Assembly (NCBI RefSeq): GCF_000215955.2
Contig: NZ_AFNV02000012.1
Location: forward strand, 1-64,000
Direction: 5' to 3'
Length of the DNA: 64,000 nucleotides
From: Salinisphaera shabanensis E1L3A
GTDB lineage: Bacteria; Pseudomonadota; Gammaproteobacteria; Nevskiales; Salinisphaeraceae
Of this stretch, positions 54,600-64,000 are shown in pieces. Positions within the stretch are counted from its first letter, which is position 1, and each line of letters opens with the position of its first letter. The translations under genes and the position numbers were made by a program. Below the pieces are notes generated by a model. It had not been told where the DNA came from. It worked only from the letters and a program-made list of their open reading frames with translations, and ran no database searches.

Positions 54600-54679
54600 G
54601 CCTGCTATGGTCGACCCCAGAATTTTCGGCCACGACGCCTGCTCATGCGTTGTCGTTTGACCTGTCCTGCGAGCTTGGC

Positions 54680-57220
54680 GTGAGCCGGCTCGACGACTAC
54701 CGCAACAAGCGCGATTTCACCCGCAGCCGCGAACCCGCGGGCGACGATCACAGTCCCGCCAGCGAGTGGCCGCGCTTTGTCGTGCACAAGCACGCCGCCT
54801 CGCATCTGCATTTCGACCTGCGCCTGGAAGAAGACGGTGTGCTGCGCAGCTGGGCGCTGCCCAAGGGCCCGAGCCTGAAACCGGGCGAAAAACGCCTTGC
54901 CGTTGCAGTCGAGGATCACCCGCTCGACTACGGCGATTTCGAAGGCACGATCCCGAAAAAACAGTACGGCGGCGGCACGGTCATGATCTGGGACGCCGGC
55001 CTGTGGCGCGAAACCAGCCAACGCAAGAAAGACCGCATCGATTTCGAACTCGCCGGCGAAAAACTGGCCGGGCATTGGACGCTTGCCCAGATGGGTGGCA
55101 AGGCCGGGGACGGCGGCAAGAACTGGCTGCTCATCAAGCGCCGCGACAAGCACCAACCCATCGACGAACCCGACGAGGCCGATACGAGTGTGGCCACCGG
55201 CCGCACGATGGCCGAAATCGCCGACGGCGCGGCCGCCAACCACGAACCACAAACGCCTGCCCCCACGCTCGATCTCGACCCCGGCGCGCTCCACGGCGCC
55301 CGTAAACGCGCGCTGGCCCGCACGCCCAAGCCGCGGCTGGCTACCTTGTCGGACAAAGCCCCCGCCGGCGACGACTGGCTGCACGAAATCAAGTTCGACG
55401 GCTATCGCATCCTCGCGCGCCTGGAGAACGGGCGCGCAACGCTGCTCACCCGCAACGGCAAGGACTGGACCGAGCGCTTCGGGGCCACGCGCCGCGCCGT
55501 CGAAGCCCTGCCCATCGATCACGCCCTACTCGACGGCGAAATCGTCGCCCTCGATCGCGACGGCATCAGCCGCTTCGGCCCACTCCAGGATGCCATCGCC
55601 AACCGTCGTACCGACCGGCTCGTCTACCAGGTGTTCGACCTGCTCCACGCCGGCGAGCACGACCTAAAAAAGGTCGCGCTGGTCGAACGCAAACGCCTGC
55701 TCCAAAAGCTCTGCGACGCGGCCGAGGCCAACCGGGCGCTGCGCTATACCGACCATATCCAGGGCCAGGGCCCGGCGTTTTTCGAACAGGCCAGCGCGAG
55801 CGGGCTGGAAGGCATCATCAGCAAACGCGCCGACGGCGCCTACAGCGGCGGGCGCAGCAAACAGTGGCGCAAGATCAAGACCAGCCATGACGACAGCTTC
55901 GTGGTCGGCGGCTATACCGAACCTTCGGGCTCGCGTGCCGGCTTCGGCTCGCTGCTGCTCGGCACGTACGACGAGCAGGGCCGCTTCGCCTATGCCGGGC
56001 GGGTCGGCACCGGCTTTTCGGACCTCCAGATCGAAGATATTTCCTCGCGGCTCGACCAACTCGGCGTGTCCAAACGCCCCTTCGTCGAGCCCGTTCCGGA
56101 CGCCGACACCGCCCACTGGGTCCGCCCCGAACTGGTGGTCGACGTCACGTTTACCGAACGCACGGCCAGCGGCGTACTCCGCCACCCCAGCTTTCGCGGC
56201 CTGCGCGAGGATCGCGATGCCGATTCAATCGGCGCCGGCCCGCACGCCGCGCCAGAGCACAACGGCGAATCGACCGGCCCAAAGAAACTGCCCCGCAGCG
56301 AGAACGCCAACCGAAAACGCCGCGCCGTCAAACTCGAAGGCATCCGCCTGACCCACCCGGATCGCGTGGTCTACCCGGAAACCGGGCTCACCAAGATCGA
56401 ACTCGCCCGCTACTTCGTCGCCATCGCGGACTGGATTCTCCCGCATATCGCCGAGCGCCCGCTGTCGCTGCTGCGCTGCCCCGACGGCCAGCACGGTGAA
56501 TGCTTTTTCCAGAAGCACCCGCGGACGGCCTTCCCGGACAGCCTGCCGACCGTCGCCATTGCGGATAAAAAAGCGTCCGACGACACGCAGGATTATGTCT
56601 ATGTACGCGACGCGGCCGACCTGGTCGCCCTCGTTCAAGCCGGCGTGCTGGAAATCCACCCCTGGGGCGCGCGTATCGACAACGTCGAACGCCCCGATCA
56701 GCTCGTCTTCGACCTGGACCCGCATACCGACGTCGAATGGGCGGAAACCTGCCGTATCGCCCGCGACCTGCGTGCCTATCTCGAAGAACTAGAGCTGACC
56801 GCTTTCCTGCGCACCACCGGCGGCAAGGGCCTGCACCTGGTCGTCCCCATCGAACGCCGCACGAACTGGGACGACGCCAAAGCCTTCGCCCGCGCCGTCT
56901 GCCAAACCTTCGCCGCCCGCGAACCCAAACGCCTGACCACGAACATGGCCAAACACAAACGCCGCGGCAAGATATTCCTCGACTACCTGCGTAACGGCCG
57001 CGGCGCGACCGCCATCGCCAGCTACTCGCCCCGCGCCCACGCCACGCCGACCATTGCCGTGCCGATTCGTTGGGACGAGCTGGCCGACCTAAACAGCCCG
57101 GATCACTACGATATTCAGCGCGTACTGCAGCGGCTGCAGAACCTGGAGAAAGATCCCTGGCTTCACCTCGGCGAGGCTAGCAAGCGGATCACCAAAGCGA
57201 TGCAGGATGCGGTCAGTTAA
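54680..57220 (+). CDS. ligD: Three-domain DNA ligase D (phosphoesterase-ligase-polymerase)
   Basis: LigD is the main end-processing and sealing enzyme of bacterial non-homologous end joining. The GTG at 54680 gives MSRLDDYRNKRDF, the usual family start; a TTG at 54650 would add ten atypical residues. In the 846-residue protein, the 3'-phosphoesterase domain has the His/Asp/Arg set in HKHAASHLHFDLRLEEDG (His36, His42, Asp46). The ligase domain has its nucleophile in HEIKFDGYRI (Lys238). The polymerase domain has the Asp678/Asp680 pair in VFDLDPH and TTGGKGLHLVVP. All motifs appear intact. Domain order is that of Pseudomonas LigD. Confidence 0.95.
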   Translation: MSRLDDYRNKRDFTRSREPAGDDHSPASEWPRFVVHKHAASHLHFDLRLEEDGVLRSWALPKGPSLKPGEKRLAVAVEDHPLDYGDFEGTIPKKQYGGGTVMIWDAGLWRETSQRKKDRIDFELAGEKLAGHWTLAQMGGKAGDGGKNWLLIKRRDKHQPIDEPDEADTSVATGRTMAEIADGAAANHEPQTPAPTLDLDPGALHGARKRALARTPKPRLATLSDKAPAGDDWLHEIKFDGYRILARLENGRATLLTRNGKDWTERFGATRRAVEALPIDHALLDGEIVALDRDGISRFGPLQDAIANRRTDRLVYQVFDLLHAGEHDLKKVALVERKRLLQKLCDAAEANRALRYTDHIQGQGPAFFEQASASGLEGIISKRADGAYSGGRSKQWRKIKTSHDDSFVVGGYTEPSGSRAGFGSLLLGTYDEQGRFAYAGRVGTGFSDLQIEDISSRLDQLGVSKRPFVEPVPDADTAHWVRPELVVDVTFTERTASGVLRHPSFRGLREDRDADSIGAGPHAAPEHNGESTGPKKLPRSENANRKRRAVKLEGIRLTHPDRVVYPETGLTKIELARYFVAIADWILPHIAERPLSLLRCPDGQHGECFFQKHPRTAFPDSLPTVAIADKKASDDTQDYVYVRDAADLVALVQAGVLEIHPWGARIDNVERPDQLVFDLDPHTDVEWAETCRIARDLRAYLEELELTAFLRTTGGKGLHLVVPIERRTNWDDAKAFARAVCQTFAAREPKRLTTNMAKHKRRGKIFLDYLRNGRGATAIASYSPRAHATPTIAVPIRWDELADLNSPDHYDIQRVLQRLQNLEKDPWLHLGEASKRITKAMQDAVS

Positions 57221-57265
57221 AGAGGCTAACGACGGCTTCGGCGGCCAGTCCTTGCTGGAAATTAT

Positions 57266-57305
57266 CCGCAAATGAACGCGAATTAACGCGAATTAACGCG
57301 AATTG
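57266..57305 (+). repeat. Short repeat with three tandem AACGCGAATT units (left copy)
   Basis: TCCGCAAATG is followed by three exact head-to-tail copies of AACGCGAATT. A related copy lies inverted at 59134-59164. The two share the first 15 bases exactly and bracket the toxin-antitoxin and membrane-protein genes. This looks like a dispersed intergenic repeat family that I have met in several bacteria. Confidence 0.8.
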
Positions 57306-57488
57306 GTTCCAGCGTTCGGAAGGGCTCCGTAGCAAGGTTCGAACTCTGAGGCTGTATCTGTATCGCGACGATCGGACGGTGCCAAACGCACCGTCGACGT
57401 CGAGACAGATAAATCGAGCCACCGAACACGGATGACCAGACCGTTACCGGACTTCCCAGCGCCTTGTCTACCGCACCACCCGGGATTA

Positions 57489-57506
57489 AACTAACTTAAC
57501 TTAGTT
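57489..57506 (+). promoter_or_regulatory. Candidate operator of the VapBC-type module
   Basis: The inverted repeat AACTAACTTAACTTAGTT has perfect 6-bp arms around a 6-bp spacer, and the flanks extend the symmetry. It ends 15 bp before the antitoxin ATG, the place where antitoxins of this type bind to repress their own operon. Confidence 0.55.
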
Positions 57507-57521
57507 CAACCGGAGCACGGC

Positions 57522-57767
57522 ATGAACACCTTCAATATCCACGAAGCCAAAACCCATCTCTCACGCCTTATCGAAGACGCTGCAAACGGTGAGCCCTTCA
57601 TTATTGCCAAGGCCGGCAAGCCGCTGGTGAAAGTCAGCGCCCTAACAGCCTTCGACGATAAAACGCCTTCGCGCATCGGCTTCATGGCCGGCGAGTTCGA
57701 CGTGCCCGATGACTTCAACGAGCTGGGTAAGGAAGCTATCGAAGACACGTTCTACGACCAATCGTGA
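57522..57767 (+). CDS. Phd/YefM-family antitoxin (VapB-like)
   Basis: An 81-residue antitoxin. The N-terminal DNA-binding half reads MNTFNIHEAKTHLSRLIEDA and GEPFIIAKAGKPLVKVSAL, the Phd/YefM signature. The C-terminal half (MAGEFDVPDDFNELGKEAIEDTFYD) is the acidic toxin-binding tail common in Phd antitoxins paired with PIN toxins. The stop overlaps the toxin GTG start. It is the first gene in the segment between ligD and the Ku genes. Confidence 0.93.
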   Translation: MNTFNIHEAKTHLSRLIEDAANGEPFIIAKAGKPLVKVSALTAFDDKTPSRIGFMAGEFDVPDDFNELGKEAIEDTFYDQS

Positions 57768-58150
57768 TCTTCCTGCTGGATACACACCTGCTGCTCTGGG
57801 CCGCCGCCGGTTCTAACCGGCTACCGCCAAGAGCGGCCGACCTCATTCAGGATGAAGCAAACCAGCTGCTATTCAGCGCTGCCAGCATATGGGAAGTAGC
57901 GATCAAGGCCGGACTCAATCGGCCCGACTTCAAGGTTTCCGCTGGACGGCTCCGCCGCGCCCTGTTCGAGAACGGCTACGACGAACTGCCAATCAGCGGC
58001 CGCCATGCCGCCGCCATCGCTAATCTGCCCGATATTCACAAAGATCCGTTCGATCGAATCCTGGTGGCACAGGCGCAGGTCGAAGACCTGACGCTGTGTA
58101 CCAGTGATAGTGTCTTGACGAGCTATCCGGGCAGTATCGAGCTGTTTTAG
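57764..58150 (+). CDS. PIN-domain toxin (VapC-like)
   Basis: A 128-residue PIN-domain ribonuclease toxin with GTG start. The catalytic acidic residues are in LLDTHLLLW (Asp6), SIWEVAIKAG (Glu), DPFDRILVAQA and LCTSDSVL (Asp), the usual order for VapC proteins that cut tRNA or rRNA. Partner of the Phd-type antitoxin that it overlaps by 4 bp. All expected acidic positions are there, so it is probably active. Confidence 0.93.
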   Translation: MIFLLDTHLLLWAAAGSNRLPPRAADLIQDEANQLLFSAASIWEVAIKAGLNRPDFKVSAGRLRRALFENGYDELPISGRHAAAIANLPDIHKDPFDRILVAQAQVEDLTLCTSDSVLTSYPGSIELF

Positions 58151-58225
58151 CCATACCTATTAGAGAATTGCTCAATTGCTCGAGGGAAGGGAGAAGTGTC
58201 TGTCCCCTTTAGGTCCCAAGAAAAG

Positions 58226-58903
58226 TCACAGGCTTGACGCTAAATCGCTAACGAGTTGACTAGCAAGCAAGATAAGACCTAGAGAACCGGGTATCACTGC
58301 GGCTATCCAAAAGCCGAATCGTGTGTTGGCGATCGCACGTGAATTGGTGAATCTTTCAAACCACCCGCTCTTCCGGGAGTCGACGAACTCTTCTACTGTC
58401 GAAAAACTCATTTTCGCATGCTTTCTCAATGCGAACGACAATGCAGTTGCACGCGCAGACTCCCATGTGATGAACGCCACCGCTGAGATAAGCATAGATA
58501 GTGCAGCAAGCGTGGCTAGTACATGATGAGCCGAGGTCGTCAAGTTCCAAAGACCAAAGAATGCGGCGTAGCCCGCAAGCTGAACACCGCGGAAATAGTG
58601 GTCTGCATTCTTGAACGTCTGTTCAACAAATTTCTTGTGTGCATCTAGGTTGCGCTGTTCTGTTTCGCGCTCCTTCGCTTGGTCGGCACGTTCACGCTCT
58701 ATTGCTTTTATACGAGATTGCTCTTGAGCTGCGGCGACGAACAAGTTCGGTTTTGCTAGCGCGCCAGCGATGAAGTTGTAACTATCCTCGAGAATGTTCG
58801 AGAGTCGGCGTTTCTCGCTCGAGGTTAACTCGGCTCCATCGTTGAGGGCCTGGAGAAAAGGATAGATCGCGCGTTGTAGTTCTTCGCCGGAAAGCTCGCT
58901 CAT
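58226..58903 (-). CDS. Hypothetical coiled-coil membrane protein in an AT-richer segment
   Basis: No family recognised. With the ATG at 58903 the product has 225 residues: an N-terminal soluble part (LSGEELQRAIYPFLQAL), a strongly charged coiled coil (AIERERADQAKERETEQRNLDAHKK), and three or four membrane helices (GVQLAGYAAFFGLWNL, LATLAALSMLISAVAFITW, FWIAAVIPGSLGLILLASQLV). The gene is visibly AT-richer than the neighbouring ligD and Ku genes and uses AT-ending codons, a sign of recent acquisition. It is opposite in strand to the toxin-antitoxin pair beside it. An upstream ATG (58996) is less convincing. Confidence 0.75.
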   Translation of the reverse strand: MSELSGEELQRAIYPFLQALNDGAELTSSEKRRLSNILEDSYNFIAGALAKPNLFVAAAQEQSRIKAIERERADQAKERETEQRNLDAHKKFVEQTFKNADHYFRGVQLAGYAAFFGLWNLTTSAHHVLATLAALSMLISAVAFITWESARATALSFALRKHAKMSFSTVEEFVDSRKSGWFERFTNSRAIANTRFGFWIAAVIPGSLGLILLASQLVSDLASSL

Positions 58904-59133
58904 GAACTGGCCCCAAAAAAGTTTGCCACCTATCGTAGGTGCAATCGACTCTCCAAGAGTCCGCAATATGGAGAAAATCCAAGTCTCGCATAGCATGCGA
59001 CGCCATAGCTGACCCCGGTTACAAATAATACTAACGTGCAGATACAGCCCAACAAACGCGAGTTCCGCATCTCATGGGCGCCACCGCCCCCTCCCCCACA
59101 ACGTCCCTTCAGCACCCCAACCTAGTCTCAAAT

Positions 59134-59164
59134 AAATTCGCGTCCATCTGCGTTCATTTGCGGA
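59134..59164 (-). repeat. Short repeat, right copy, inverted relative to 57266-57305
   Basis: On the minus strand this starts with the same 15 bases, TCCGCAAATGAACGC, as the left copy and ends in ACGCGAATTT. It lies 67 bp before the first Ku gene. The pair forms an inverted repeat around the 1.9-kb segment. Confidence 0.8.
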
Positions 59165-59231
59165 CTGTGTCTTCCCCGGTTTTCCGTCATAGTCAGTTGA
59201 AAGCCTTCCCGGCCAACAGCGAGACGAGCCC

Positions 59232-60008
59232 ATGACCGCCCGAGCGATGTGGAAAGGTGCGATTCATTTCGGCGGCATGCGCGTGCCGGTGAAGTTCTAT
59301 GCGGCGGTGGCCGACAAGAGCGTGCATTTCCGGCTGCTGCATGAGAAAGACCAGGTGCCGGTGAAGCAGGCGATGGTGAATCCGGAAACGGATGACGTGG
59401 TCGCCCAGTCCGAGGCGCAGTATGCGTATGTGACCGAGGATCATGACTGGGTGGTGCTCGACGAAGAGGACTTCGACGCGATCGAGCCGGAGGCCTCTCG
59501 CGAGATCGATATCCTGCATTTTCTGCCGGCGGGGGTGATCGACCATCGTTGGTATCTGCGCCCCTACTATCTCGGCCCGGACGGGGACGAGGCGAGCTAT
59601 GGCGCGCTCATCAAAGCGCTCGAACAGACCGGCCGCGAAGGCGTGGCCCGCTGGGTGATGCGCAAGAAGACCTACGTGGGCGCACTGCGGCTGTACCACG
59701 GCTATCCGGTGATGGTGTCGTTGCGCCATGACGGCGAAGTCGTGTCCATCGACGAGTTGAAGGCGCCGAGCGGGCGCAAGCTCGATGACAAGGAACAGGA
59801 CATGGCGGCGCAGCTCATCGACATGCTCGCCGAGGATTTCGACCCGGCGGACTACGAGAACAGCCACCGCGAACGCATTCTCGATCTCATCGAGACCAAA
59901 CGACGCGGCGAGAGCGTCAAGCTCACGCCGATCAAGCAGCGCGAGCCGTCGGACAACGTGGCCGAGGCCCTGGAAGCCAGCCTGAAGCGCGAGCGCAAGA
60001 GTGCCTAA
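59232..60008 (+). CDS. ku: Ku homodimer DNA-end-binding protein, first copy
   Basis: Bacterial Ku binds double-strand ends and recruits LigD. This 258-residue copy has the family start RAMWKGAIHFGGMRVPVKFYAA, the core WVVLDEEDFDAIEPEASREIDI, YYLGPDGDEASYGALIKAL and a helical end with HRERILDLIETKRRG. A GAGACGAG ribosome site precedes it. It is the shorter of two Ku proteins and overlaps the second gene by 8 bp. The basic C-terminal tail typical of many Ku proteins is short here. Confidence 0.95.
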   Translation: MTARAMWKGAIHFGGMRVPVKFYAAVADKSVHFRLLHEKDQVPVKQAMVNPETDDVVAQSEAQYAYVTEDHDWVVLDEEDFDAIEPEASREIDILHFLPAGVIDHRWYLRPYYLGPDGDEASYGALIKALEQTGREGVARWVMRKKTYVGALRLYHGYPVMVSLRHDGEVVSIDELKAPSGRKLDDKEQDMAAQLIDMLAEDFDPADYENSHRERILDLIETKRRGESVKLTPIKQREPSDNVAEALEASLKRERKSA

Positions 60009-61068
60009 GCAAAAGCAGGACGACAAAGACGACAAGGACTACCACGAGGCCGAGCACCACGGCCCGCGCCCGTTCTGGTCCGGCACGATCACCTTCGGGC
60101 TGGTGAGCCTGCCGGTGAGCCTGTACGTGGCCACGCGCTCCAAGCGCGTGAAGCTGCGTATGGTTGATCACGACGGCGAGCCGCTGGCCAAGCGCTATTT
60201 CTGCCCGGCCGAGGAGATCGCGCTGGAATCCGACGAGATCGTGCGCGGCTACGAGGTCGAGAAAGACCAGTTCGTGGTGGTGGAAAACGAGGAGCTCGAC
60301 GCCATTGCCCCGGAGAAATCGCAGGAGATCGACCTGCGCCGTTTCGTGCCGGTGGACCAGATCGATCCGATGTTCTTCCAGCGCGCCTACTTCCTGGCGC
60401 CGAACCAGGGCGCGATCAAGCCCTACCGGCTTCTGGCCCAGAGCATGGAAGACAGCGAGCGGGCGGGCATTGCCACCTGCGTGATCCGCGGCAAGGAATA
60501 CCTGCTGGCGATTTTGTCGCACCAGGGCATTCTGCGGGCCGAGATTCTGCGGTTTGCCGAGGAGCTGCGCACCCCGGCCGATATCGGCCTGCCCGAGTCG
60601 ATCGATGCCGATAACGACCTCACGAAGAAGATGGTCAAGTCGATCGAGGCGAACGGGCGCAAGACTCTGGATCGCGACGCACTCACCGATGTGCGCTCGG
60701 AACGTATTCGCGAGCGCGTGGACGACAAGCTCGAAGCCGACGAGGACGTGATCCACGAGGCCGAAGACGACGATATCGAGGATGCCGACAGCGACGAAGA
60801 GCCGGTCGATCTCATGGCCGTGCTCAAGCAGAGCCTGGAACAAAAGAGCGGCGACTCGGGCAGCGACAAGCACAAGAAAAATAACGGGAAGAAGCGCAAG
60901 AGCAAGCCGCGGAAATCGAAGAAGAAAGCGCAGAAAAAGAGCGGCGGCGACCAACCAAGCACCGATATGACGCGCGATGAGCTCTACGATCGCGCCCAGC
61001 AGCTGGATATCCCGGGACGTAGCCGTATGACTAAAGAAGAACTCGCTGCCGCGATCAACGACGCCTGA
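60001..61068 (+). CDS. ku: Ku DNA-end-binding protein, second copy, with Lys-rich and SAP/Rho_N-like tail
   Basis: A second, divergent Ku of 355 residues with GTG start. The core has PFWSGTITFGLVSLPVSLYVAT, FVVVENEELDAIAPEKSQEIDLRRFV, and YFLAPNQGAIKPYRLLAQ. After about residue 255 the protein turns acidic, then strongly Lys-rich (DKHKKNNGKKRKSKPRKSKK). It ends in a small helical domain, TRDELYDRAQQLDIPGRSRMTKEELAAAI, resembling SAP or Rho N-terminal DNA-binding motifs. This tail is likely an extra DNA contact. The 8-bp overlap suggests fixed co-expression with the first Ku. Confidence 0.95.
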   Translation: MPKQKQDDKDDKDYHEAEHHGPRPFWSGTITFGLVSLPVSLYVATRSKRVKLRMVDHDGEPLAKRYFCPAEEIALESDEIVRGYEVEKDQFVVVENEELDAIAPEKSQEIDLRRFVPVDQIDPMFFQRAYFLAPNQGAIKPYRLLAQSMEDSERAGIATCVIRGKEYLLAILSHQGILRAEILRFAEELRTPADIGLPESIDADNDLTKKMVKSIEANGRKTLDRDALTDVRSERIRERVDDKLEADEDVIHEAEDDDIEDADSDEEPVDLMAVLKQSLEQKSGDSGSDKHKKNNGKKRKSKPRKSKKKAQKKSGGDQPSTDMTRDELYDRAQQLDIPGRSRMTKEELAAAINDA

Positions 61069-61312
61069 AAAAGCAAGAAGAAAACCCTTGTATTTTTATC
61101 GAGTTACGGACGCATAAAATCGGCGCCCATAGTCACCCAGTATCAATCGGCCCCATCGGCACGAAAACTGCGTTTGCCTGCGCCCTGGAACGGACTACGC
61201 TGGTAGCCAGGGGGCGCCCGCACCGACGACGGCTTGCGGGCCGAGCCGTTGGCAGGCCGGATTCCAACGCAATCAAGACAACAACAAGTACATCGATAAA
61301 ACAGGGGGCTTC

Positions 61313-62743
61313 ATGACGGCCGATCAGATTGGTTTTTCCTTACTCATGCTGGCGATTTTGCTATACGCCGGCAAATGGGTACGTATGCACTGGGGGCCGG
61401 CCCAGAAGCTGTTTCTGCCGGCCTCGATTCTGGCCGGCGCCATCGGGCTGATTCTCGGGCCCGGCGTACTCGGCGCCATCGCGGCTGCGGTAGGCGGCGA
61501 AGACGCGGCCATGGCACAGGGCGTGATTCCCGAATCAATGCTCTCGATCTGGAGTGACCTGCCGGGACTTTTGATCAACGTGGTGTTCGCCACGCTGCTG
61601 CTCGGCGTGCCGCTCCCCAACTTCAACCGGGTGTGGAGCCTGGCGGGGCCGCAGCTCGCGTTCGGCATTACGCTTGGCGCGGGTCAATACGTGATCGGCA
61701 TTCTCATCGCCGCGCTCGTTCTGGCTCCGTTTTTCGGCGTGCCGATCATGGCCGGCGCGCTCATCGAAATCGGCTTCGAAGGCGGCCACGGTACGGCGGC
61801 CGGCCTGCAAGGCACGTTCGCAGAACTCGGTTTCGCCGACGGCGCCGACCTGGCCGTTGGCATGGCGACGGTCGGCGTGGTCTCGGGCATCGTGTTCGGC
61901 ATCATCCTGATCAACTGGGGCGTACGTAGCGGCAAGAGCGCGGTGCTCGACAAAAGCGTCGACAGCATTCCGCACGACCAGCGCCGCGGTCTGGTCGCCC
62001 ATGATGATCGCCCGGTATCGGCCGGCAACATGACGGTGCGCTCGGAGTCGATCGAACCGCTGACGCTGCATTTCAGCTTCGTCGCCATGGCCATTCTGGT
62101 GGGCCTGGGCATTCTCGAGGCCATGAGCTGGGTCGAAAGCGTGACCTGGGGTGCGGGTGAAAACGGCGTCGAACTATTGAGCGCGGTGCCGCTGTTCCCC
62201 TTGGCCATGATCGGTGGCCTGGTCGTACAGCAATTGCTCACCCGCTTCGACAAGCACAACCTGCTCGATCGCGACCTGATGGTGCGTATCCAGGGGTTCG
62301 CGCTGGATCTGCTCATTGCGGCGGCCATCGCCAGCCTGTCGCTGACCGTGATCGCCGATCATTGGGCGGCTTTCCTGATGCTCGGCCTGGCCGGCATCGC
62401 CTGGAACGTGGGCATGTTCCTGTGGCTCGCACCGCGGGTCATCCCGAAGTACTGGTTCGAGCGCGGCATTGGCGATATCGGCCAGTCCATGGGTGTGACC
62501 GCCACCGGCCTGATCCTCATGAAGATCGCCGATCCGGACAACAAAACGCCCGCCTACGAGGCCTTCGGCTACAAGCAGATGGTGTTCGAGCCGTTCTTCG
62601 GCGGCGGCCTCGTCACCGGCCTGGCCTTGCCCATCATCTACAACTTCGGCCCCTGGCCGTTCTTTGGGGTGATGCTGGCGCTGGTGGTGTTGGGCATCGG
62701 CTCCGGGCTGCTCTACTTCGGGCGCTTGAAGCAGGACTACTAG
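61313..62743 (+). CDS. Sodium/glutamate symporter family protein (GltS-like)
   Basis: A 476-residue transporter with about ten to twelve helices and a long internal loop. It matches the ESS (GltS) family by the duplicated pore motifs: IEIGFEGGHGTAAGLQGTFAELGF in the first half and FERGIGDIGQSMGVTATGLILMKI in the second. E. coli GltS takes up glutamate with sodium; this protein is longer, so the true substrate is not certain. It follows the second Ku gene by 244 bp with no visible gene between, and has no evident link to repair. Confidence 0.85.
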   Translation: MTADQIGFSLLMLAILLYAGKWVRMHWGPAQKLFLPASILAGAIGLILGPGVLGAIAAAVGGEDAAMAQGVIPESMLSIWSDLPGLLINVVFATLLLGVPLPNFNRVWSLAGPQLAFGITLGAGQYVIGILIAALVLAPFFGVPIMAGALIEIGFEGGHGTAAGLQGTFAELGFADGADLAVGMATVGVVSGIVFGIILINWGVRSGKSAVLDKSVDSIPHDQRRGLVAHDDRPVSAGNMTVRSESIEPLTLHFSFVAMAILVGLGILEAMSWVESVTWGAGENGVELLSAVPLFPLAMIGGLVVQQLLTRFDKHNLLDRDLMVRIQGFALDLLIAAAIASLSLTVIADHWAAFLMLGLAGIAWNVGMFLWLAPRVIPKYWFERGIGDIGQSMGVTATGLILMKIADPDNKTPAYEAFGYKQMVFEPFFGGGLVTGLALPIIYNFGPWPFFGVMLALVVLGIGSGLLYFGRLKQDY

Positions 62744-62965
62744 CTCAGCGCTCTATGGCGCGATATTCGGCCAAGACGGCTGGATATCGCGCTTTTGTTC
62801 TCGGTCGCCGAGCAAGTTGTCGTCAAGACTCGCAGCTCACACTGTTTGTTTCCTAAACCAACCATAAAGGTGAATTTGGCCTTCGGGTTTCGCACTGCAG
62901 CGCGAAACAAAAGGTCCAACAAACTCGTGAGTACCGACACCCTCGTGAACCGTTCGAGTTCTTGC

Positions 62966-63838
62966 TCAGTCGTCGAACTGACGAATAGCCGCCGACAAAC
63001 TCTGCCGATGCCGGTCGATCTCCGCCCAGGGACAATCCCGCTGGCCAAGTCGACGAAAGATATTCCCCAGATGAAACCGCTGTGGCCCGATTTCGGCGTC
63101 GCTCAGCTCGTCCCAGTCCAGCGGCGTGGCGATCGGCGCGCCGGGTTTGGCGCGTAGCGAATACGGCGCGATGCCGGTCTGGGCATAGGCATTGCGCCGA
63201 ATATCAAGATACAGCCGCCCGTGACGTTTGTCCTTGCGGTGGGCGGTGGTGAAATTATCCGGGTGTTCGTCGGCAAGTTGCTCAGCCACACGCTCAGCGA
63301 AATCCCGCACCGTGTCGAAATCGGCGCTGCGATCCAGCGGGACCACGACATGCAGGCCAGAGGAACCGGTCGTCATCACGAACGCCTGTAGCCCGAGCCC
63401 GTCGAGACGCTCGCGCACGCAACGCGCCGCCTTCACCACGAGATCGAAGTCGTCGCCCGGCGGATCCAGATCGAAGATCAGCCGGTCCGGATAGTGCGGC
63501 TTGTCGGCGCGGGACAGCCAGACATGGAATGCGATCGTGCCCTGATCGACCAACCAGGCTAGCGTGTCGGCATCGCCCGCAAGGGCGTGGGTGATCTCGC
63601 CGTCTTCCTTGTCGACGGTCACCCGCTTTATCCAGTCCGGATAGTGATCCTGAACGCTTTTCTGGATGAAATTCACCCCCGCGATACCGTCTGGGAAACG
63701 ATGCAGCGTCAACGGCCGGTTCTCGATATGGCGCAACATCTCGGCCGAGATACGCTGGTAGTAATCGGCGAGATCGCCTTTCGTGTAACCCGCATCGGGG
63801 AAAAACACCTTGTCGGCGTTATCGATTTCGATACTCAT
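62966..63838 (-). CDS. Stand-alone LigD-type polymerase/primase
   Basis: A 290-residue protein equal to the polymerase domain of LigD, an archaeo-eukaryotic primase-type enzyme that fills and extends broken ends, often with ribonucleotides. It starts IEIDNADKVFFPDAGYTKGDLADYY. The metal-binding pair is in LIFDLDPPGDDF, followed by FVMTTGSSGLHVVVPLD and GRLYLDIRRNAYAQTGIAPYSLRA. It overlaps the stop of an upstream ligase gene by 4 bp. It is only about 37% the length of full LigD and is not a fragment of the copy at 54680, since its motifs differ. Confidence 0.93.
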   Translation of the reverse strand: MSIEIDNADKVFFPDAGYTKGDLADYYQRISAEMLRHIENRPLTLHRFPDGIAGVNFIQKSVQDHYPDWIKRVTVDKEDGEITHALAGDADTLAWLVDQGTIAFHVWLSRADKPHYPDRLIFDLDPPGDDFDLVVKAARCVRERLDGLGLQAFVMTTGSSGLHVVVPLDRSADFDTVRDFAERVAEQLADEHPDNFTTAHRKDKRHGRLYLDIRRNAYAQTGIAPYSLRAKPGAPIATPLDWDELSDAEIGPQRFHLGNIFRRLGQRDCPWAEIDRHRQSLSAAIRQFDD

Positions 63839-64000
63839 GGCGCATTTTCGGGTTGTTCGCGCACGACTTCGCGTGCGTCCTTGTCGTCACGCTCGCCGAG
63901 ATAGCTGGGATGACGCAAGCGGCCGTCGTCGGTCCATTCGGTGAAGGCGAATTCCGCGACGCGCTCGGGCGTAACCCAGTGCACGCCGGCCTGATCGGCA
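63835..64000 (-). CDS. Second ATP-dependent DNA ligase, C-terminal part only
   Basis: Only the last 54 codons are inside the window. They read VHWVTPERVAEFAFTEWTDD, then GRLRHPSYLGERDDKDAREV and a short Glu/Pro-rich end. This matches the C-terminal OB-fold end of LigD/LigC-type ATP-dependent ligases, where FTEWTDDGRLRHP is a common signature. The stop overlaps the ATG of the stand-alone polymerase gene, so both form an operon. The remainder lies beyond 64000, so I cannot tell whether a phosphoesterase domain is also present. Confidence 0.82.
   Translation of the reverse strand, partial: ADQAGVHWVTPERVAEFAFTEWTDDGRLRHPSYLGERDDKDAREVVREQPENAP

What the first reader, a model, noticed from the sequence alone, without database searches (positions are those of the whole stretch)
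54680..64000. Redundant end-joining locus: full LigD, two Ku proteins, separate polymerase and second ligase
The sequence shows a complete three-domain LigD, two different overlapping Ku genes, and a convergent operon of a free LigD-type polymerase plus another ATP-dependent ligase, all within 9.3 kb. Most end-joining bacteria carry one Ku and one LigD. Multiple Ku and LigD sets are known in some rhizobia and actinobacteria, but this compact mixture of fused and split ligase/polymerase is unusual for a gammaproteobacterium. It may give specialised pathways or a heteromeric Ku.
Basis: partly seen in the sequence, partly recalled or inferred. Interest (0 to 1): 0.8.

Follow-up and report, generated by a model that had tools for sequence, protein, structure and literature searches.

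The report
Paired-Ku module beside Ku-independent split LigD
A salt-loving marine bacterium carries an older three-gene DNA-end repair kit that most of its relatives keep without the usual partner protein Ku, and next to it a newer, transferable end-joining module with two different Ku proteins that probably work as a pair.

Summary
The genes are real, but the reading changes. The window lies in a Salinisphaera-type gammaproteobacterium. Beyond base 64000 the 'free polymerase plus ligase' proves to be a complete LigD cut into three overlapping genes (PE, Lig, Pol). Two systems of different history sit side by side. (1) The split operon is the genus norm: Pol occurs in 11 of the 14 genus genomes searched; all three genes are whole in 9, seven of them without detectable Ku. 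It is under purifying selection, diverges at about background rate, and its Pol belongs to a widespread stand-alone clade. (2) Fused LigD-Ku1-Ku2 is accessory: 2 of 14, inserted between ybaK and gltS, with low divergence that suggests recent exchange. Six further genomes, all in the order of Alcanivorax, hold both Ku whole; most share the 8-bp gene overlap. Ku1 is minimal; Ku2 has a Rho_N/SAP-like tail. No genome examined kept one whole partner and lost the other. Neither partner groups with rhizobial Ku pairs (AU p up to 0.003). Best reading: an asymmetric heteromeric Ku module beside a Ku-independent end-healing and gap-sealing set. Heteromer formation and Ku-independence are inferred, not shown. 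New variant of a known kind.

The parts
54650..57220 (+). fused LigD (PE-Lig-Pol), 856 aa; possible start also at 54680
   Evidence: Pfam LigD_N, DNA_ligase_A_M, DNA_ligase_A_C, LigD_Prim-Pol; NCBIfam PRK05972 964 bits; relatives directly upstream of Ku1-Ku2 in three Alcanivoracaceae genomes
57221..59231 (.). variable cargo slot between ligD and ku1: Phd antitoxin 57522-57767, PIN toxin 57764-58150 (+), 256-aa ORF with hydrophobic stretches 58226-58996 (-); a retron fills this slot in the close relative G003
   Evidence: no alignment to G003 between 57214 and 59218
59232..60008 (+). Ku1, minimal Ku (258 aa), no extended tail
   Evidence: Ku domain; own clade 100/100; Ku fold
60001..61068 (+). 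Ku2 (355 aa), overlaps ku1 by 8 bp (GTGCCTAA)
   Evidence: Ku domain 140.6 bits and Rho_N; own clade 100/100; junction; Ku fold
60961..61065 (+). Rho_N/SAP-like tail of Ku2, after a lysine-rich linker
   Evidence: Pfam Rho_N 28 bits; conserved in 7 of 8 Ku2; modelled with pLDDT about 90
61313..62743 (+). sodium/glutamate-symporter-like gene (gltS; name recalled, no Pfam or NCBIfam match at E 0.001); not part of the system, marks the insertion boundary
   Evidence: beside ybaK, with no Ku or fused LigD between, in G008, G011 and G012
62966..63838 (-). split set, third gene: stand-alone Prim-Pol (290 aa)
   Evidence: LigD_Prim-Pol 307 bits; closest solved structure 5dmu, 'NHEJ Polymerase'; stand-alone Pol clade
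63835..64000 (-). split set, second gene: stand-alone NHEJ-type ligase (338 aa); runs on to contig position 64851; the first gene, the phosphoesterase (207 aa), lies at 64844-65467 outside the window

Best explanation
Two DNA-end repair systems of different history lie side by side. The older, vertically inherited one is a trisected LigD (PE, Lig, Pol in one overlapping operon). In most Salinisphaera it works without Ku: I infer that PE cleans 3' ends, Pol fills short gaps, probably with ribonucleotides, and Lig seals the nick, as a single-strand or gap repair set. The younger one is an exchangeable end-joining module, fused LigD-Ku1-Ku2. Its two Ku proteins are made in step from overlapping genes and most likely assemble as an asymmetric heteromer: Ku1 is a bare ring half, while Ku2 is a ring half with a basic linker and a Rho_N/SAP-like tail that probably binds DNA. 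This Ku threads onto broken ends and recruits the fused LigD. Shown: genes, domains, conservation, order, selection, phylogeny, and a divergence pattern that points to lateral exchange. Inferred: heteromer formation, Ku-independence of the split set, and which LigD each Ku serves.
For: Split set: Pol in 11 of the 14 genus genomes, three whole ORFs in 9, Ku in only 2 of 14; dN/dS 0.085-0.363 in six comparisons per gene between Ku-less genomes of the genus; dS between this genome and G003 0.77-0.91 against a median of 0.75 for 18 ORF pairs from three other regions; Pol in a 43-row stand-alone clade (98/96), apart from a clade of 27 fused and one separate Pol. Module: present in 2 of 14; ybaK and gltS next to each other without it in G008, G011 and G012; dS 0.15-0.23, below every one of the 18 pairs (lowest 0.39). 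Pair: 8 genomes with both Ku whole (Ku2 of G003 without its tail), 3 with remnants only; 8-bp overlap in 6 of 8; Ku2 tail in 7 of 8 and none on any Ku1; each Ku its own clade at 100/100 with a long stem (1.36-1.49; rhizobial pair clades 0.49-0.64); both models find solved Ku structures first.
Against: No binding or activity data. Two of 8 pairs lack the overlap. A tree cannot tell a heterodimer from two coexpressed homodimers. The trees of Ku1, Ku2 and LigD of the 8 carriers do not agree fully, and in G1232 LigD lies on another contig than the Ku pair. Genes flanking the module also have lowish dS between this genome and G003 (0.35, 0.44, 0.46), so the exchanged stretch may be wider than the module. 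Stand-alone Pol accompanies the module in 5 of 8 carriers but 2 of 20 single-Ku genomes (Fisher p 0.009, relatedness not corrected), so the two halves may cooperate where both exist. The split set is itself decayed in G001 (Pol broken) and G004 (Lig not found) and its Pol was not found in three genus genomes. About half of the complete split sets looked at outside the genus sit in genomes with Ku (5 of 11). Both AlphaFold models are of middling confidence (pLDDT 71).
Confidence: 0.6

Rival explanations
1. Ku1 and Ku2 form separate homodimers used under different conditions, as proposed for rhizobial and Streptomyces Ku copies; no heteromer forms.
For: Multiple Ku genes with separate roles are one reading in Streptomyces and S. 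meliloti (passages of PMC5124664). The Ku fold is predicted for both.
Against: Overlapping genes in 6 of 8 and joint retention or joint loss in 11 of 11 genomes with a trace fit co-assembly better than separate deployment; no other Ku fell in either clade in the trees, and of 156 loci with any Ku match those at 42% identity or more to Ku1 or Ku2 are all from pair carriers or remnants. Most single-Ku genomes were not placed on a tree (four were).
Confidence: 0.27
2. One integrated system: the split PE-Lig-Pol set is a helper of the Ku pair and fused LigD, giving extra processing capacity at Ku-bound ends.
For: Physical neighbourhood; in the family of G594 all 3 module carriers also hold a PE-Pol pair, against 3 of the other 43 genomes; in G594 and G631 the LigD of the module has no PE domain.
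Against: The split set has all three genes whole in 7 genus genomes without detectable Ku; three module carriers (G1128, G1183, G1232) have only the fused Pol; the two halves show very different divergence between this genome and G003.
Confidence: 0.2
3. Passive accumulation: neighbouring DNA-repair genes gathered by chance at a recombination-prone site, with no special division of labour.
For: The slot between ligD and ku1 carries unrelated cargo that differs between strains; only a Ku2 remnant is left in G006.
Against: dN/dS well below 1 for all the genes tested, and preservation of the Ku pair at about 50% identity across families.
Confidence: 0.1
4. The split set arose by fission of the fused LigD next door.
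For: Same domain order PE-Lig-Pol.
Against: Its Pol lies in a stand-alone clade apart from the clade that holds the fused LigD of the window; its Pol is far closer to 5dmu (326 bits) than to the P. aeruginosa-type structure 2fao (152 bits), the PE only slightly closer to 5dmp (176 bits) than to 2lj6 (167 bits); 37-45% identity to the fused LigD of G003. No Lig or PE tree was made.
Confidence: 0.03

Closest known systems
Conventional bacterial NHEJ (one Ku homodimer plus fused LigD; Pseudomonas, Mycobacterium)
   Same: Ku core, three-domain LigD, genes close together
   Different: Two diverged, overlapping Ku genes instead of one, plus a second complete LigD in pieces
Two Ku genes in one operon, suggested to give heterodimers (PMC1378119 citing an earlier paper, passage; rhizobial Ku copies)
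   Same: Tandem Ku genes, possible heteromer
   Different: Ku1/Ku2 are a separate lineage: joining either to a rhizobial pair clade is rejected (AU p 0.00023-0.0029; two of the four groupings repeated with more rows, 0.00044 and 0.00185); one partner always minimal, the other with a Rho_N/SAP-like tail
Streptomyces KuB with SAP domain
   Same: C-terminal SAP-type domain on a bacterial Ku (passage of PMC5124664)
   Different: Here the tailed Ku is fixed in a pair with a tail-less Ku, usually with overlapping genes
Eukaryotic Ku70/Ku80
   Same: Works like: two unequal Ku subunits, one carrying a SAP-type tail (passages of PMC11936186 on Ku70)
   Different: No other domain found in Ku1 or Ku2 by Pfam; homology of the tail to the Ku70 SAP is not shown (no sequence match in the PDB); independent origin likely
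Methanocella paludicola split NHEJ set (PE, Pol, Lig in one operon; passages of PMC4797286)
   Same: Separate PE, Lig and Pol encoded together; 5dmu and 5dmp, which I take to be its Pol and PE, are the closest solved structures
   Different: Widespread in a gammaproteobacterial genus and mostly without Ku
Mycobacterial LigC/Prim-PolC complex
   Same: Stand-alone ligase and Prim-Pol from one operon, acting in excision repair (passages of PMC5663958)
   Different: The split Pol is far closer to 5dmu (326 bits) than to 5op0 (167 bits; Prim-PolC as I recall); PE is present

Membership tests
Bacterial Ku | Ku beta-barrel core over family cut-off | tested here: met
   Ku1 106.7 bits and Ku2 140.6 bits against cut-off 25; TIGR02772 227.9 and 234.5 against 150
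Bacterial Ku | Ku fold in a predicted model | tested here: met
   Best PDB matches are B. subtilis and M. tuberculosis Ku, best E 2.9e-20 and 1.7e-19; models only pLDDT 71
Bacterial Ku | Binds DNA ends as a dimer | not testable with these tools
   needs purified proteins
LigD (fused) | PE, ligase and Prim-Pol domains in one protein | tested here: met
Split LigD set (archaeal type) | PE, Lig and Pol as separate ORFs in one operon | tested here: met
   overlapping ORFs here; three separate neighbouring ORFs in 9 of 14 genus genomes
Split LigD set (archaeal type) | Works with Ku | tested here: inconclusive
   No Ku found in 12 of 14 genus genomes; Ku found in 5 of 11 genomes outside the genus with a complete split set
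Heterodimeric Ku | Two distinct Ku genes co-inherited | tested here: met
   8 intact pairs, 3 remnants, no lone Ku1 or Ku2 among the loci and trees examined
Heterodimeric Ku | Physical heteromer | not testable with these tools
   only single-chain models were possible
Rhizobial Ku-pair lineage | Ku1 or Ku2 groups with either rhizobial clade | tested here: not met
   AU p 0.00023, 0.00032, 0.0029, 0.00068 for the four groupings
LigC/Prim-PolC complex | Pol closest to Prim-PolC | tested here: not met
   326 bits to 5dmu against 167 bits to 5op0; identity of 5op0 as Prim-PolC is recalled

The most novel reading that the evidence does not exclude
Bacteria evolved, independently of the rhizobial Ku pairs, an obligate asymmetric Ku heterodimer built like Ku70/Ku80 (one bare subunit, one with a SAP-type tail), carried on an exchangeable LigD-Ku1-Ku2 module that here landed beside a genus-wide, Ku-independent trisected LigD that repairs gaps.
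Probability: 0.45. Interest if true: 0.7.

Novelty: new variant of a known kind. Interest (0 to 1): 0.52.

Why it matters
Bacterial Ku is described as predominantly homodimeric (passage of PMC1378119); a fixed, unequal Ku pair outside rhizobia would give a small, tractable model for why eukaryotes use two different Ku subunits. A complete PE-Lig-Pol set kept under selection in genomes without Ku offers a direct test of what LigD chemistry does apart from double-strand break joining. In the survey by Sharda et al. 2020 (passages of PMC7719229), 90% of the genomes with LigD but no Ku lacked POL and PE, so a mostly Ku-less genus holding all three parts falls in the rare remainder.

Tried and rejected
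Fission of the fused LigD as origin of the split set: disfavoured by the Pol tree (its bootstrap had not settled, and its rows were picked by hand from the loci). Kinship with rhizobial Ku pairs: rejected. A decayed Ku or split set in this genome: not seen. A strict dependence of the Ku module on a stand-alone Pol looked likely from the family of G594 (3 of 3 carriers) but failed when three more carriers proved to have only the fused Pol. A conserved extra gene replacing Ku beside split sets: an all-against-all comparison of 23 loci returned, among the 40 top rows shown, mostly reverse-strand ORFs that overlap PE/Lig/Pol by coordinates, and a few ORFs shared by Alcanivorax, Halomonas and two MAGs, with no clear candidate; ORF functions were not looked up. 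An Ile in the Pol base-stacking pair (Phe-Phe in most fused LigD rows) occurs in all nine Salinisphaera rows of the tree but also in three other stand-alone Pols; I did not test it against Ku and draw nothing from it. A plasmid search with Ku1 found only distant Ku (659 records, all under 60%; at most 34% in the 30 rows listed). Literature: a search for Salinisphaera with end joining gave one paper, on pesticide bioremediation by its title; the Ku3/Ku4 and ligD4 searches listed no primary paper on rhizobial Ku pairs.
Full report
What is there. The window is the first 64 kb of a 129-kb contig of a 3.76-Mb draft genome. Five of the seven closest named loci to its split Pol carry Salinisphaera names, and several are the same contigs as genomes the tool puts in the window's genus. 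At its right end lie a fused LigD (54650-57220), a Phd/PIN toxin-antitoxin pair, a 256-aa ORF of unknown kind, two overlapping Ku genes (59232-60008 and 60001-61068), a gltS-like gene, and on the other strand a stand-alone Prim-Pol (62966-63838). Reading on along the contig shows that this Pol is the last of three overlapping genes in the order PE (207 aa), Lig (338 aa), Pol (290 aa) (families). Both sets keep the ligase KxDG lysine, the Pol aspartates and the PE residues in alignments to solved structures (residue roles recalled).

The split set is the genus norm and mostly without Ku. In the 14 genomes of the genus (this one included), the Pol family is found in 11 and Ku in 2. Nine have all three ORFs whole; in G004 no Lig was found and the Pol of G001 is broken. 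Seven of the nine have no detectable Ku. Three of the 14 assemblies are only 81-87% complete, but in one of them, G006 (85%), a single contig spans the locus. Between Ku-less genomes dN/dS is 0.085-0.363 over six comparisons for each gene (the G005 reading frames for PE and Lig were trimmed to the aligned part). Between this genome and G003 the three genes have dS 0.77-0.91. For comparison, 18 reciprocal-best ORF pairs from three other regions have a median of 0.75 (0.39-1.48); the regions were those of helicase paralogues, not drawn at random, and two of the 18 are ORFs nested antisense in others (without them, by hand recount, 16 pairs, median 0.785, lowest 0.41). In a 77-row tree the Pol sits with 42 other stand-alone Pols from many phyla (98/96), apart from a clade of 28 (27 fused, one separate) that holds the window's fused LigD; five more fused Pols and one separate one branch off beside the stand-alone clade.

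Beyond the genus. From the 80 best loci of a genome scan I asked 27 genomes for Ku: 8 of 27 have it; five of the 27 are Salinisphaera-genus genomes again, leaving 8 of 22. Ten loci outside the genus have all three split genes (L119 confirmed); their genomes have Ku in five cases. With G138 (no Ku; operon) that is Ku in 5 of 11.

The Ku module is accessory and probably exchanged. In G008, G011 and G012 ybaK and gltS lie 270-360 bp apart with neither Ku nor fused LigD between; in this genome and G003 the fused LigD and the two Ku genes lie there, and G006 keeps only a piece of the Ku2 tail. Module dS between this genome and G003 is 0.15-0.23, lower than any of the 18 comparison pairs; the nearby gltS, helicase and aminotransferase genes are lowish too (0.46, 0.44, 0.35). 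DNA identity is 92-93% in the ybaK-ligD and Ku1-gltS blocks against 85% in the block that holds the split set. Between ligD and ku1 the two genomes share nothing: a toxin-antitoxin pair and an unknown ORF here, a type II-A retron in G003.

The Ku pair is a conserved unit. A class-wide sample (369 genomes) gave Ku1 relatives over 45% identity only in these two genomes; the family of the Alcanivorax MAG G594 gave 3 of 46; its order gave five full-length and two partial among 390, two of the five already known. In all there are 8 genomes with both Ku whole (Ku2 of G003 is a 322-aa ORF whose tail lies in another frame) and 3 with remnants only, G006, G918 and G1026. LigD lies upstream in 7 of 8 (here and in G003 with cargo between); in G1232 it is on another contig. 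Ku1 and Ku2 overlap by 8 bp in 6 of 8 if the GTG or ATG read as start is right (here, G003, G633, G1128, G1183, G1232). Ku1 is 255-258 aa in all, with the start set at the conserved methionine. Ku2 is 347-417 aa as called (351 or 365 in G1128), with a Rho_N/SAP-like tail in 7 of 8; Pfam names it Rho_N, over the cut-off here and in G1183 and G1232, under it in G633 and G1128, and not at all in G631. Among 169 Ku ORFs (many copies of the same gene) the only other matches to this tail were weak ones in Actinopolyspora Ku.

Origin of the pair. In Ku trees of 106 and 45 rows each partner is its own clade (100/100) with a long stem; rhizobial pairs form two other clades inside the alphaproteobacterial part. 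With G1128, G1183, G1232 and four more single Ku added (53 rows), both clades hold six rows at 100/100. Joining either partner to either rhizobial clade is rejected (AU p 0.00023-0.0029; 0.00044 and 0.00185 for the two groupings repeated), while Ku1 and Ku2 as sisters is not (0.467 and 0.221). Among 156 loci with any Ku match, those at 42% identity or more to Ku1 or Ku2 all come from pair carriers or the G918 remnant. So the pair is a separate instance of Ku pairing, perhaps from one duplication. Ku2 was not used as a query in the genome searches, and most single-Ku genomes were not placed on a tree, so a lone Ku2 elsewhere is not excluded.

Mechanism. Shown: gene structure, domains, conservation, selection, divergence pattern. 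Inferred: because the pair is kept or lost together and usually made from overlapping genes, the likeliest product is a Ku1-Ku2 heteromer in which only Ku2 brings a basic linker and a probable DNA-binding tail; it would recruit the fused LigD. Both end their core in a similar short motif with a conserved leucine and serine, which in other Ku proteins belongs to the minimal C-terminal region (recalled). The split set, living without Ku in most of the genus, most likely heals 3' ends, fills gaps and seals them on its own, as the mycobacterial LigC/Prim-PolC complex does in excision repair (passages of PMC5663958). Its Pol is closest to 5dmu and its PE, by a small margin, to 5dmp, which I take to be the archaeal enzymes of PMC4797286 (passages), so likeness to LigC is functional only.

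Do the two halves cooperate? Five of 8 module carriers also have a stand-alone Pol, against 2 of 20 single-Ku genomes of the order of G594 (Fisher p 0.009, not corrected for relatedness; frame length alone was used to call a Pol stand-alone in those controls). Three carriers lack it, so it is not needed.

Known and new. Two Ku genes in one operon and possible heterodimers were noted long ago (PMC1378119, passages); a SAP tail on a Streptomyces Ku is known (PMC5124664, passages); separate PE, Lig and Pol are known (PMC4797286), as are LigD-only genomes, of which 90% lacked POL and PE (PMC7719229, passages). New here, as far as the searches reach (open-licence papers, listings and passages only), are the asymmetric Ku1/Ku2 lineage with its LigD module, and the genus-wide, mostly Ku-less, complete split set. 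Hence 'new variant of a known kind'.

Noticed in passing
window 57221-59218; L037:14607-16474: A cargo slot between ligD and ku1 holds a Phd/PIN pair and a 256-aa ORF here (50-57% GC against 61.6% for the window) and a type II-A retron (RT plus NDT effector) in G003; a 12-bp repeat lies inverted at 57268 and 59150 (two matches with up to one mismatch occur in 22 of 100 shuffles).
   Followed up: partly
L003:6073-8187 (own contig 66072-68186): A UvrD/PcrA-like helicase paralogue lies 2-5 kb from the split Pol in most genus genomes (15 kb in G007, 49 kb in G004); near full-length matches in 10 of 14, all of which also have the split Pol or its remains.
   Followed up: partly
L220, L274, L113, L279 (G594, G631): In two genomes of the Alcanivorax family the LigD of the Ku module has no PE domain (707-708 aa) while a PE-Pol gene pair lies elsewhere in the genome.
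   Followed up: partly
   Followed up: no
L131 (Bacteroidales MAG): Another neighbourhood with a stand-alone Pol about 2.4 kb from a fused LigD plus a single Ku.
   Followed up: no
L314 (G1026), L313 (G918): Decaying modules: whole LigD with Ku1 fragments only, and pieces of LigD, Ku1 and Ku2.
   Followed up: no
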